Origin: Kiloniellales bacterium
Lineage (GTDB): Bacteria; Pseudomonadota; Alphaproteobacteria; Kiloniellales; JAKSBE01
DNA: 64,000 nt
Direction of reading: 5' to 3'
Assembly: GCA_030066685.1 (NCBI GenBank)
Contig: JASJBF010000002.1
Span: 62,001-126,000 of the forward strand
Position numbers and translations under genes: made by a program. The notes under the pieces were generated by a model. It searched no databases, was not told the origin of the DNA, and saw only the letters and a list, made by a program, of their open reading frames with translations. Below are positions 7,176 through 51,787 of the stretch, piece after piece (positions within the stretch are counted from its first letter, which is position 1; each line of letters begins with the position of its first letter).

Positions 7176-8078
7176 TCAGCCGCCGCCGGGGACCCGCGGC
7201 TTTGCGCCGGGCCGCGCCTCGATCAGCTCGGCGATACAGCGCGGCAGGGCGAAGGCGCCCTGGTGCACCGCCGGGGTGTAATAGCGGGTCTCGATCCCGG
7301 ACGCGGCGAAGCGTTGCTCCAAGGTCGCCGTTTCGGCTTTCAGGGCCGCGGCGGCCCGGGCGGCCAGGACGAAGACCATGTCGCCGCCGAAGAAGCTGGG
7401 CACGGCGACCCGGTAGCAGGCGGTCGCGGCGAAGCTGCGGCCCAGGGCGGTGAGCGGTCCGGCGAGGGACGCGGGCTCGGTGAAGGGAACCGCGTTCTGG
7501 GTGACCAGCAGACCATCCTCGGCCAGAAGCCCGGCGCAGTCGGCATAGAAGCTCTCGGTGAAGAGCACCTCGCCCGGCCCGACCGGATCGGTGGAGTCGA
7601 TCAGGATCAGGTCGAAGGGCGCCCGCCGGCCCCTCTGCTCGGCGACCCAGGCGAGGCCGTCGGCGATCACCAGCTCCAGGCGCCGGTCCTCGAAGGCCTT
7701 GCCGCAGATTGCCTCGAGGTGAGTTCTGGAGAAGTCGATCACCGAGCGGTCGATCTCGACCAGGGTCGCCTCGCGGAGGCTGCCGTGCTTCAGCAGCTCC
7801 TCTAAGGCGCCGCCGTCGCCGCCGCCGACGATCAGTGCGCGCTCGACCGCGCCGTGTGCCAGGACCGGCACGTGGACCAGCATCTCGTGATAGAAGAACT
7901 CGTCGTTCTCGGTGGTCTGGACGATGCCGTCCAGGGCCAGGACCCGGCCGAAGAGCGGGTTCTCGAAGAGCAGCAGGTCCTGGTGCGGCGTCGTCTCCCG
8001 ATGCAGCACCCGCTCGATGCGCAGCTGCAGGCGCCAGGCCCCTCCGTCGCGGTCGGCCTCTTCCGACCAGGCGGTCAT
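7176..8078 (-). CDS. speE: Spermidine synthase, copy 1
   Basis: A 300-aa protein from the ATG at 8078, which overlaps the speD stop by 4 bp (ATGA). It transfers the aminopropyl group from decarboxylated SAM to putrescine. Motifs: the N-terminal beta domain with DGIVQTTENDEFFYHEML, the nucleotide-binding loop IVGGGDGGALEE, the acidic residue in LVEIDRSV, and the catalytic DSTDPVGPGEVLFTESFY. The upstream frame remains open to 8180 but that stretch is inside speD. Together with speD it forms a two-gene polyamine unit; a second unit lies at 40157-41475. Confidence 0.9.
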   Translation of the reverse strand: MTAWSEEADRDGGAWRLQLRIERVLHRETTPHQDLLLFENPLFGRVLALDGIVQTTENDEFFYHEMLVHVPVLAHGAVERALIVGGGDGGALEELLKHGSLREATLVEIDRSVIDFSRTHLEAICGKAFEDRRLELVIADGLAWVAEQRGRRAPFDLILIDSTDPVGPGEVLFTESFYADCAGLLAEDGLLVTQNAVPFTEPASLAGPLTALGRSFAATACYRVAVPSFFGGDMVFVLAARAAAALKAETATLEQRFAASGIETRYYTPAVHQGAFALPRCIAELIEARPGAKPRVPGGG

Positions 8079-41504: not shown

Positions 41505-41547
41505 AAATGCTGCGCCCGCCGATTTACTTCGCAGGTGCAGCATTTTT
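41505..41547 (+). terminator. Intrinsic terminator after speE copy 2
   Basis: AAATGCTGC (41505-41513) pairs with GCAGCATTT (41537-41545), and the right arm runs into five T residues (41543-41547). An inner TGCG/CGCA stem may extend it. Located 30 bp after the speE stop and immediately before the promoter of the RNA candidate. Confidence 0.65.
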
Positions 41548-41550
41548 CTC

Positions 41551-41578
41551 TTGATTCTGAATCCAGCCGCTTTATAAC
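41551..41578 (+). promoter_or_regulatory. Sigma70-type promoter for the large RNA candidate
   Basis: TTGATT (41551-41556), a 16-bp spacer, then TATAAC (41573-41578). Predicted start is near 41585. No open reading frame with a ribosome binding site follows, while a strongly structured sequence begins at once. Confidence 0.6.
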
Positions 41579-42015
41579 CCTGCCTCCCGGGCCGCTTGGG
41601 GTCCGGTCGGAAGGATACTTCGGGGCAACCCGGATAAAGGCGTGAAGCCTACATAGCGCCGCCCGCAAGGGTCCGTCCAAGCAAGCGCCGATGACCCCGC
41701 GAGGGGGCCTCATCCGAATGGTGGGGCGAAGTCGGACTGCATGTCTGCGGTCCTGCAAGGGATAGGTCCTGGCCGACGGTGGGGGCCGAAAGGGCAGGTG
41801 GAACCGCCGCCGCAAGCCAAGACATCGTCCGCCGATCGTCAAGGCGTGGTGCCGCCGGTACGAGGGTTGTTGCCTGAGTGCTGCGGTGCAGGTGACCGGG
41901 GAGACATCCTCGGGCAGCCCGTGGGACGCCCCTAACAAGGGACCCGTAGACGGTGAGTTCTATTCCTGGCCCAAGAGGTCGGGAGGAACCGCTGGGGCTC
42001 GTCGTCGTAGGTTGC

Positions 42016-42079
42016 GTAAGCAGCTCATAGCGAGCAGCGGGCTTATAACCCGAAGGGAAGGTGCGATTCCTTCGCTTGC
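42016..42079 (+). other. tRNA-like cloverleaf inside the large RNA candidate
   Basis: An acceptor-like helix of six pairs (GTAAGC 42016-42021 with GCTTGC 42074-42079). D-like arm GCTC-ATAGC-GAGC. Anticodon-like arm CGGG-CTTATAA-CCCG with a seven-base loop whose centre would read TAT. T-like arm GAAGG-TGCGATT-CCTTC with a seven-base loop. The D loop is only five bases and lacks GG, and the variable region is minimal, so it is not a normal tRNA. It is more likely a structural mimic. Confidence 0.6.
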
Positions 42080-42170
42080 CACCTCGCCAAGGTGGAAACG
42101 CAAAAGCCCCCAGCGGTGCGGGCACGGAAAGATGCCTAATCCCGGCCATCTCAGGATGAAGTCGGGGGTT

Positions 42171-42440
42171 AGGAGTCTATCTGAGCAATGCTCACGGTCT
42201 GCATCGTTCAGGGAAGACCGAGGGTTAGGAGCGCGGGCGCCGGCGATGCTGGGTGCATCGTCAAGCTTGCGCGACGACACCCTCGGTCTTCCCTGAACGA
42301 CCCGCAGGGCCCTGTTCTCAAGACCTTGGGACGTCGTCGGCTACCGCTTGCGATGCGTCCAGCATCGCGGCGCGCCACCCTCCTAGACCAAGGCCTTGAG
42401 AACAGGGTGCAGGCCATGAGCATTGCTCAGATAGACTCCT
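42171..42440. repeat. Composite palindromic element E inside the RNA candidate
   Basis: Outer arms of 33 bp (AGGAGTCTATCTGAGCAATG... and its complement ending at 42440) are identical except for two changes. Inside are two facing hairpin units. Unit 1 has the 22-bp perfect stem beginning TCGTTCAGGGAAGACC; unit 2 has a stem beginning CCCTGTTCTCAAG. Both enclose versions of one core (TAGGAG, GCGATGCTGG..GCATCG, AAGC, GACGAC). So the core is shared and the arms differ. It looks like a mobile REP/MITE-type insertion within, or tolerated by, the RNA. Confidence 0.75.
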
Positions 42441-42708
42441 AAGAGGCCGCAAGCCGAATGGCCTTGCTGTAGGACCGGGCGAACTGGGTCGGCCAACCCA
42501 AACCGTTCGGAAAGCAGCGAGACGGCTCGCACGACGGGTGAGACGCCGCACCCCAAAAAAGGCGGCATTGGGCTGATACCCGGGGAAACCCGGGTGGATG
42601 AAGGGCTAACCGGAGGCGCCACCTTCGGGTAGGGTCCAGAAGGCAGCCCGCGGAGGCCCGTAGTCTCAGGGTTTCCCGATTTCCTTTCCGGACGACCGCG
42701 AGGCTCTG

Positions 42709-42833
42709 GGGCATTATCCGATCAAATGGAATCGCCACGCGATCCATCTGGCCGGATGTAACGCCGTATTTCCAACGTATTAGCGCACTATTCCCGGCCA
42801 GACGCGAACGCGTCTGATCGGGAAGTGCGCTAG
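42709..42833. repeat. Paired-palindrome repeat, copy B
   Basis: Inverted, about 90% identical copy of repeat A (3111-3238). It has the GGGCATTATCCGATC hairpin, the linker CCAACGTATTAG, then the AGCGCACT/AGTGCGCT hairpin with inner ACGC/GCGT stem. Its terminal CTAG (42830-42833) supplies the stop codon of the peptidase gene. Several differences between A and B are in the loops and linker. Confidence 0.85.
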
Positions 42834-51214: not shown

Positions 51215-51787
51215 ATGACGCCACCGGCCGAAACGCGGGATGACCTCGTGCGGGAGGCGGTCGGCGTCTTCCACGACGCCCGGGCCCTGGAAGCGGCGGT
51301 CGACAGCCTGATGAGCCATGGCTTCGACCGGGCCGAGATCAGCCTCCTGGCCGGCGAGCACGCGGTCGAGGCCAAGCTGGGCGCGCACTACCGGCGGGTC
51401 CAGGACCTGGAGGACGATCCGCAGGCGCCGCGTCGGGCTTTCGTCTCGACCGAGGCCATCGGCGACGCCCAGGGCGCCCTGATCGGCGGTCTGATCTACC
51501 TGGGCGGAGCGGCGACGGCAGGGGCCCTGGTCGCCACCGGCGGCTCGCTGATCGGCGCGGCGGTCGCCGCCGCCCTCGGCGGCGGAGCGGGCGGCCTGAT
51601 CGGTTCGGTCCTGGCCGGGCTGATCGGTGACAGGCACGCCCGGGGACTGCAGGAACAGCTCGATCGCGGCGGCCTTCTGCTCTGGGTCCGGACCCGTGAC
51701 GGCGAACACGAGGAAAAAGCCCTCGGCCTGCTCCGGGACGCCGGCGCCAGCGACGTTCACGTCCACGGCCTGATAGACAAGCCGTAG
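51215..51787 (+). CDS. General-stress-protein-like membrane-associated protein with glycine-zipper
   Basis: A 190-aa protein with GGGGAGAG before its ATG. The first 70 residues resemble the GSP17M/YflT-type alpha-beta domain (AVGVFHDARALEAAVDSLMS, FDRAEISLLAG). A long Gly/Ala-rich hydrophobic hairpin follows (residues about 90-145, with IGSVLAGLIGDRHA). The C-terminal strand LLLWVRTRDGEHEEKAL resembles the end of a second such domain. It is probably attached to membranes. Function unknown; stress context is inferred from phaC, Usp and Lon-like neighbours. Confidence 0.65.
   Translation: MTPPAETRDDLVREAVGVFHDARALEAAVDSLMSHGFDRAEISLLAGEHAVEAKLGAHYRRVQDLEDDPQAPRRAFVSTEAIGDAQGALIGGLIYLGGAATAGALVATGGSLIGAAVAAALGGGAGGLIGSVLAGLIGDRHARGLQEQLDRGGLLLWVRTRDGEHEEKALGLLRDAGASDVHVHGLIDKP

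What the first reader, a model, noticed from the sequence alone, without database searches (positions are those of the whole stretch)
41585..42704. A ~1.1-kb structured RNA candidate with its own promoter and a tRNA-like domain
The interval contains no credible CDS, yet has a sigma70-like promoter (TTGATT-N16-TATAAC), a preceding terminator that isolates it, long-range closing pairs, GNRA-capped hairpins and a cloverleaf-like module. It does not look like RNase P RNA, tmRNA, SRP or 6S RNA. Excluding the inserted palindromic element it is about 850 nt, in the class of giant bacterial RNAs (GOLLD, ROOL). Whether it belongs to GOLLD, some of whose members carry a tRNA, or is new is open.
Basis: partly seen in the sequence, partly recalled or inferred. 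Interest (0 to 1): 0.85.

Follow-up and report, generated by a model that had tools for sequence, protein, structure and literature searches.

The report
Phage-type GOLLD RNA in bacterial chromosome
The stretch encodes a divergent GOLLD RNA, a giant phage-associated RNA known to build hollow RNA cages, sitting alone among housekeeping genes of an alphaproteobacterium with a broken tRNA in its middle, which suggests that a bacterium captured and kept a phage RNA.

Summary
In detail: 41585-42704 is a non-coding, structured RNA gene of about 845 nt plus a 268-bp mobile insert. It is a divergent GOLLD RNA (RF02032). Rfam gives 68 bits (E=3e-17) despite the insert, and 124 bits (E=6e-33) in a sister species that lacks it; the curated cut-off is 150. 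Two covariance models made here (3' core, 5' domain) show strong covariation and link it to GOLLDs above the cut-off, including Mesorhizobium phage Cp1R7A-A1. The cloverleaf is a decayed tRNA in the GOLLD linker, where related phages carry intact tRNAs. The palindrome is a MITE-like TA-target insertion in helix P19. The gene stands alone between speE and an M1 peptidase gene; a third species of the genus has the empty site. It evolves more slowly than neighbouring synonymous sites. A second alphaproteobacterium (G058) has a ~475-nt short form without the linker. Lab phage phiCbK carries an unannotated GOLLD with tRNA-Gly in its linker. GOLLD itself is known; solitary, selected chromosomal copies with a decayed tRNA are the new part. 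The cage is inferred from cryo-EM of GOLLD env-38. Host function is unknown; my best guess is an RNA cage retained from a phage.

The parts
41505..41545 (+). terminator-like inverted repeat that closes the speE operon upstream
   Evidence: better paired in the sister species
41551..41578 (+). sigma70-like promoter TTGATT-N16-TATAAC
   Evidence: hexamers unchanged in sister; TTGACA-N17-TATATC at the same place in phage relative L151
41589..41683 (+). conserved start of the GOLLD 5' domain: hairpin with loop GCTTGG (41594-41599) pseudoknotted with CCAAGC (41677-41682), GNRA hairpin 41619-41634, helix 41639-41642/41657-41660, GCAA hairpin 41662-41671
   Evidence: model R2, 98.5 bits; 13 of 23 pairs with double changes over 7 sequences
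41684..41947 (+). rest of the GOLLD 5' (cap) domain, less conserved between lineages
   Evidence: 5' domain as a whole 92.8% identical to sister; mostly missing from the G058 short form
41948..42672 (+). Rfam GOLLD (RF02032) match, model 1-416, containing linker and insert
   Evidence: 68.4 bits, E=3e-17; sister 124.3 bits, E=5.6e-33
42015..42081 (+). degenerate tRNA in the GOLLD linker (T-arm GAAGG-TGCGATT-CCTTC; D-loop lacks GG; anticodon loop CTTATAA, CTCAAGA in sister)
   Evidence: 27.2 bits, below cut-off 29; intact tRNAs in the linker of relatives L132, L147 and of phage GOLLDs
42080..42094 (+). hairpin CACCT/AGGTG that covers the 3' end of the tRNA-like part; T-A to C-G double change in sister
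42100..42138 (+). GOLLD signature GCAAAAG...GAAAGATGCCTAAT
42116..42123 (+). P17 closing helix, 5' strand (3' strand 42525-42532)
42141..42166 (+). hairpin P18
42167..42463 (+). hairpin P19 (GGTTA/TGGCC, inner GGC-CGCAA-GCC at 42445-42455), interrupted by the insert
42172..42439 (.). 268-bp MITE-like insert, 23-bp perfect terminal inverted repeats, TA duplicated (42170-42171, 42440-42441)
   Evidence: absent in sister; single copy in genome
42485..42500 (+). hairpin L21a with self-complementary loop GGCC (symmetric kissing loop; GCGC in G058)
   Evidence: bridge B8 in PMC12286853
42536..42553 (+). L22 / J17/22 pseudoknot GGGTG (42536-42540) with CACCC (42549-42553)
   Evidence: direct reading; interaction described in PMC12286853
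42544..42672 (+). GOLLD 3' core P22-P27 (model R1), ending in GTAGTCTCA
   Evidence: 95.3 bits; covariation 0.787 against 0.246 shuffled

Best explanation
It is a GOLLD RNA gene of phage descent that now stands alone, as a 1-kb unit with its own promoter, in the chromosome of a Kiloniellales alphaproteobacterium. Shown here: the conserved GOLLD secondary structure (5' domain, linker, 3' domain), presence and absence of the whole unit at one locus within the genus, slower evolution than neighbouring synonymous sites, decay of the linker tRNA, and intact tRNAs in the same linker of related phages. Inferred: the RNA is transcribed; it assembles into a closed many-copy RNA cage like GOLLD env-38; the tRNA-like linker lies inside and no longer works as a tRNA. 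Guess: in the phage the cage holds or hides a tRNA, or binds host factors, late in infection; the host kept the cage for a non-translational role such as sequestering an RNA or protein, or interfering with a related phage's cage.
For: Rfam GOLLD 68.4 bits, E=3e-17 in the window and 124.3 bits, E=5.6e-33 in the insert-free sister. 3' core covariation with 20 GOLLDs, 22 of 26 pairs with double changes. 5' domain covariation including a loop pseudoknot; R2 finds, unseen, the 5' domains of GOLLDs above the cut-off (L057-L060, E 0.002-0.009; Mesorhizobium phage Cp1R7A-A1, E=8.6e-7). The L21a kissing loop keeps its palindrome and shows the GC/CG swap reported from the cryo-EM study. Empty site in G001. 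Identity to sister: 3' domain 98.3%, 5' domain 92.8%, against 84% and 75% at third codon positions of the two neighbours and 79% in the spacer. Linker tRNAs intact in L132, L147, phiCbK, Phosso and Cp1R7A-A1.
Against: The score is below Rfam's gathering cut-off of 150 bits in both species. No transcription data. P21b is missing, though it is also missing in L060, which is above the cut-off. The 268-bp insert could break the RNA in this strain. The oligomeric state and the function are not testable here. The gene is in only two of three species of the genus.
Confidence: 0.82

Rival explanations
1. It is a decaying relic of a phage GOLLD: still recognisable, but no longer functional in this strain.
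For: The linker tRNA is degenerate, a 268-bp element has landed inside the RNA, one species of the genus has no copy, and the G058 copy has lost about 330 nt.
Against: The 3' domain is 98.3% identical between species against 75-84% at third codon positions. Changes keep pairs and GNRA loops (GCAA to GUGA; CACCT/AGGTG to CACCC/GGGTG). The insert is self-paired and sits at a P19 internal loop, so the rest can still fold. The promoter is conserved.
Confidence: 0.25
2. It is a separate, new large RNA family that only resembles GOLLD in its 3' core.
For: Scores are below the GOLLD cut-off; the 5' domain is not modelled in Rfam; the G058 form lacks the linker and the GCAAAAG-CTAAT signature.
Against: The full-length model 1-416 aligns in order. 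Phage Cp1R7A-A1 is above the GOLLD cut-off and carries the same 5' domain. The 3'-core tree mixes these with known GOLLDs.
Confidence: 0.05
3. The locus is a small prophage remnant, and the GOLLD is merely the last piece left.
For: All close relatives outside the two bacterial lineages are in phage contigs.
Against: Neighbours are speD, speE, an M1 peptidase and a ChaN-like gene; the empty site in G001 has speE and the peptidase directly adjacent; no phage gene is in between.
Confidence: 0.12

Closest known systems
GOLLD RNA (RF02032), env-38 cryo-EM form (PMC12286853)
   Same: 3' domain layout P17-P27 with signature motifs, variable linker that can hold a tRNA, L21a symmetric kissing loop, L22 pseudoknot, separate 5' domain
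   Different: GC-rich and below the Rfam cut-off; different 5' domain sequence; lies outside phages; tRNA decayed; carries a 268-bp insert
GOLLD of Mesorhizobium phage Cp1R7A-A1 (MT188704), Caulobacter phage phiCbK and Sinorhizobium phage Phosso (found here, unannotated)
   Same: alphaproteobacterial hosts; linker tRNA at the same place; Cp1R7A-A1 shares the 5' domain and is nearest in the 3'-core tree (support 0.77)
   Different: phage-borne, intact tRNA, above the Rfam cut-off
Mycobacterial GOLLD in tRNA arrays (PMC6582537)
   Same: chromosomal GOLLD with a pseudo-tRNA inside; expressed at low level in M. aubagnense
   Different: lies within a large mobile tRNA array; the present copy stands alone
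ROOL RNA
   Same: large phage-linked RNA that forms a cage
   Different: unrelated sequence; no Rfam match here

Membership tests
GOLLD (RF02032) | Score at or above Rfam gathering cut-off (150 bits) | tested here: not met
   68.4 bits (window, with insert) and 124.3 bits (sister); an operational cut-off, E=3e-17 and 5.6e-33. Relatives with the same 5' domain pass it (193.5 bits).
GOLLD (RF02032) | Conserved 3' domain structure with covariation | tested here: met
   Full model 1-416 aligned; 22 of 26 core pairs with double changes over 20 sequences
GOLLD (RF02032) | Signature GCAAAAG...GAAAGnTGnCTAAT after the linker | tested here: met
   42100-42138
GOLLD (RF02032) | Less conserved 5' domain, together over 800 nt | tested here: met
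   About 845 nt without insert; 5' domain shared with phage GOLLDs
GOLLD (RF02032) | L21a self-complementary kissing loop and L22/J17-22 pseudoknot | tested here: met
   GGCC at 42491-42494, GCGC in G058; GGGTG/CACCC
GOLLD (RF02032) | L21b kissing loop (P21b) | tested here: not met
   P21b deleted; also deleted in L060, which scores 201.8 bits, so not universal
GOLLD (RF02032) | Phage, prophage or tRNA-array location | tested here: not met
   Between speE and an M1 peptidase gene, empty site in G001; a usual association, not a structural criterion
GOLLD (RF02032) | Homo-14-mer RNA cage | not testable with these tools
   Needs biophysics
functional tRNA | Intact cloverleaf with D-loop GG and TTC loop | tested here: not met
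   27.2 bits below 29; D-loop ATAGC; T-loop TGCGATT; anticodon loop not conserved

The most novel reading that the evidence does not exclude
Alphaproteobacteria have at least twice captured phage GOLLD genes as free-standing chromosomal RNA genes that are kept by selection after loss of the linker tRNA. The RNA cage itself would then have a host function, for example co-assembling with and spoiling the GOLLD cages of infecting phages.
Probability: 0.3. Interest if true: 0.85.

Novelty: new variant of a known kind. Interest (0 to 1): 0.6.

Why it matters
GOLLD forms one of the largest known RNA-only cages, and its function is unknown. This locus and its relatives give natural variants of the parts: cage with intact linker tRNA (phages), with decayed tRNA (this genus, phage L151), and without linker (G058). 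If a bacterium keeps the cage under selection without a working tRNA, carrying a tRNA cannot be the whole purpose. The unannotated GOLLD in phiCbK, a phage of the lab strain Caulobacter crescentus, with tRNA-Gly in its linker, makes the question testable in a genetically tractable phage-host pair.

Tried and rejected
Protein-coding explanation: rejected. RNase P, tmRNA, 6S, SRP, ROOL, OLE, HEARO: no Rfam match. MicroRNA-family matches in the insert are chance matches to a long hairpin. Plain blastn of the RNA found no relatives in phages or plasmids; covariance models and motif patterns were needed. Many hits of the looser patterns were chance or coding matches and failed R1. L132 and L147 blastn hits in many phages are tRNA matches only, by position in the query. 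The insert has no other copy in its genome, so its transposase family stays unproven. A further GOLLD near the 21-tRNA array on another contig was not found. Searches of the order (61 genomes), class (385) and phylum (398) found only G000, G002 and G058; the filters were strict, so absence is not proof. A first script with fuzzy matching timed out. The 3'-core tree has weak support except L107 with L151 (0.99).

Full report
WHAT WAS CHECKED. The interval 41585-42704 was read on both strands. It has no credible coding sequence: the longest ORFs on either strand match no Pfam family, and no ORF of 120 aa or more stands opposite the antisense ORF in the sister species. The strict promoter scan did not list it, but its hexamers and spacing are identical in the sister species, and the phage relative L151 has TTGACA-N17-TATATC at the same distance from the RNA.

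IDENTITY. Rfam at the gathering cut-off finds nothing here. With relaxed thresholds GOLLD (RF02032) aligns over its full length to 41948-42672 with 68.4 bits, E=3e-17, although about 270 nt of insert are penalised. The same gene in the sister species G002 (identical to MAG Kiloniellales bacterium PL23b_bin.6), which lacks the insert, scores 124.3 bits, E=5.6e-33. The cut-off is 150. A covariance model (R1) of the 3' core P22-P27 was built from 11 sequences with the Rfam structure. Over 20 GOLLDs, 94.1% of cells pair, 22 of 26 pairs have changes on both sides, and the covariation score is 0.787 against 0.246 shuffled and at most 0.15 when slid (this alignment was fitted to the structure, but the independent MAFFT alignment gives 0.627 against 0.229).

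THE 5' DOMAIN. GOLLD 5' domains vary between lineages (PMC12286853), and Rfam does not model them. R1 found a further alphaproteobacterial copy in G058. Its start matches the window over 71 nt at 82%, E=1e-14. Patterns made from that stretch found phage contigs L132, L135/L139, L147/L150 and L151, each with an R1 hit downstream except L139, whose locus ends before that point. Seven sequences share a hairpin whose loop (GCTTGG, 41594-41599) pairs with CCAAGC (41677-41682). The pairing covaries: GCTTGA/TCAAGC in L107 and L147, CCGTGG/CCACGG in L135. A GNRA hairpin and two further helices covary as well. The total is 97.5% of cells paired, 13 of 23 pairs with double changes, and a score of 0.580 against 0.179 shuffled. 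Model R2 from these, without having seen them, hits the 5' domains of marine-type GOLLDs above the cut-off (L057-L060, E 0.002-0.009) and of Mesorhizobium phage Cp1R7A-A1 (E=8.6e-7), which itself scores 193.5 bits as GOLLD. This ties the window's 5' domain to true GOLLDs.

CAGE CONTACTS. Two interactions seen in the 14-mer cryo-EM structure can be read here. The L21a loop at 42490-42495 holds the palindrome GGCC; in G058 the same hairpin is TGGAGcGCGCaCTCCA, that is GCGC, the GC/CG swap reported as evidence for intermolecular bridge B8. The L22 loop CACCC (42549-42553) can pair with GGGTG in J17/22 (42536-42540). P21b is missing, as it is in L060. That the RNA forms a cage is inferred from these features, not shown. 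Helix numbers follow PMC12286853 by position and were assigned by me.

THE tRNA. 42015-42081 scores 27.2 bits as tRNA, below the cut-off of 29, and ARAGORN does not call it. The D-loop lacks GG, the T-loop is TGCGATT, and the anticodon loop differs between the two species (CTTATAA, CTCAAGA). A hairpin right behind it (42080-42094) keeps pairing by a T-A to C-G double change. It sits in the GOLLD linker, which in the cryo-EM structure lies inside the cage. Relatives L132 and L147 have ARAGORN-called tRNAs there, as do phiCbK (tRNA-Gly), Phosso and Cp1R7A-A1 (tRNA-Leu). Its T-arm differs from that of L132 by one base, though own-genome tRNAs align about as well overall, so descent is not proven. 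A pseudo-tRNA inside GOLLD has also been reported in Mycobacterium aubagnense (PMC6582537).

THE INSERT. 42172-42439 is a 268-bp element with 23-bp perfect terminal inverted repeats and a duplicated TA; without it the sequence has the same length as the sister here. This looks like a MITE of the TA-target (IS630/Tc1-mariner) kind, but no other copy or transposase was found in its genome. It lies in the 5' strand of hairpin P19 beside an internal loop and pairs with itself, so the rest of the fold could survive (inference).

LOCATION AND SELECTION. Neighbours are speD, speE, an M1 peptidase and a ChaN-like protein. In G001, of the same genus, speE and the peptidase gene are adjacent with nothing between, so the RNA is a discrete unit gained or lost as a whole. 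Identity between window and G002 is 98.3% in the 3' domain, 93.7% in the linker part and 92.8% in the 5' domain. Third codon positions give 84% (speE) and 75% (peptidase), and the spacer 79%. This indicates selection on the RNA. G058's copy also stands among ordinary-looking ORFs (bioD-like, P-type ATPase; read from the translations). It keeps the 5' start and the 3' core but lacks about 330 nt with linker and signature, and it ends in a GC hairpin plus T-run. In the 3'-core tree G058 pairs with phage L151 (support 0.99) and the window with phage Cp1R7A-A1 (0.77), which suggests two captures from phages (125 columns, so only suggestive). The RNA is rare: G000, G002 and G058 were the only hits in the order, class and phylum samples.

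HOW IT MAY WORK. Published work shows that GOLLD env-38 builds a hollow 14-mer; the same paper states that GOLLD rises during phage lysis, that linker tRNAs are sometimes present, and that ribosomes bound GOLLD in pull-downs (PMC12286853). The most likely reading is a captured phage cage RNA, still selected, whose linker tRNA no longer serves translation. What the host gains is open; interference with incoming phage cages by mixed assembly, or sequestration of a host factor, would fit. No transcription data are available.

NOVELTY. GOLLD, its linker tRNAs and chromosomal GOLLD in tRNA arrays are known. New here, as far as the held papers show, are a solitary, apparently selected chromosomal GOLLD in Alphaproteobacteria, a linker-less short form, a covarying 5' domain shared by phages and hosts, and unannotated GOLLDs with linker tRNA in phiCbK, Phosso and Cp1R7A-A1. 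From memory, the original GOLLD report named cultivated bacteria of several phyla, so a first for Proteobacteria is not claimed.

Noticed in passing
L156 (Caulobacter phage phiCbK JX163858, 102501-107609), 2542-3028 and 1715-2033: Unannotated GOLLD above the Rfam cut-off with the annotated tRNA-Gly in its linker; a permuted tmRNA match (71 bits) lies close by on the other strand. A close relative, BL57 (L159), shows the same.
   Followed up: partly
L157 (Sinorhizobium phage Phosso) 2865-3333; L158 (Mesorhizobium phage Cp1R7A-A1) 2531-2993: Unannotated GOLLDs above the cut-off, each with a tRNA in the linker; L158 lies within a large tRNA array.
   Followed up: partly
L060 1006-1088: An 83-nt RNA matching the ends of tmRNA (51.8 bits) with almost no middle, directly upstream of a viral GOLLD.
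   Followed up: no
L102 308-2370 (own genome, G000:C37:39030-40808): Array of 21 tRNA genes in about 2 kb, on another contig of the same genome; no GOLLD found there.
   Followed up: partly
window 42706-42800: Dispersed ~95-bp repeat, about 40 copies in the genome, directly downstream of the RNA; absent at this site in the sister species.
   Followed up: no
window 51541-51623: tRNA-Glu called by ARAGORN only; Rfam does not support it.
   Followed up: no
window 7211-7954, minus strand: Second spermidine-synthase-like gene, 72% identical to the speE next to the RNA.
   Followed up: no
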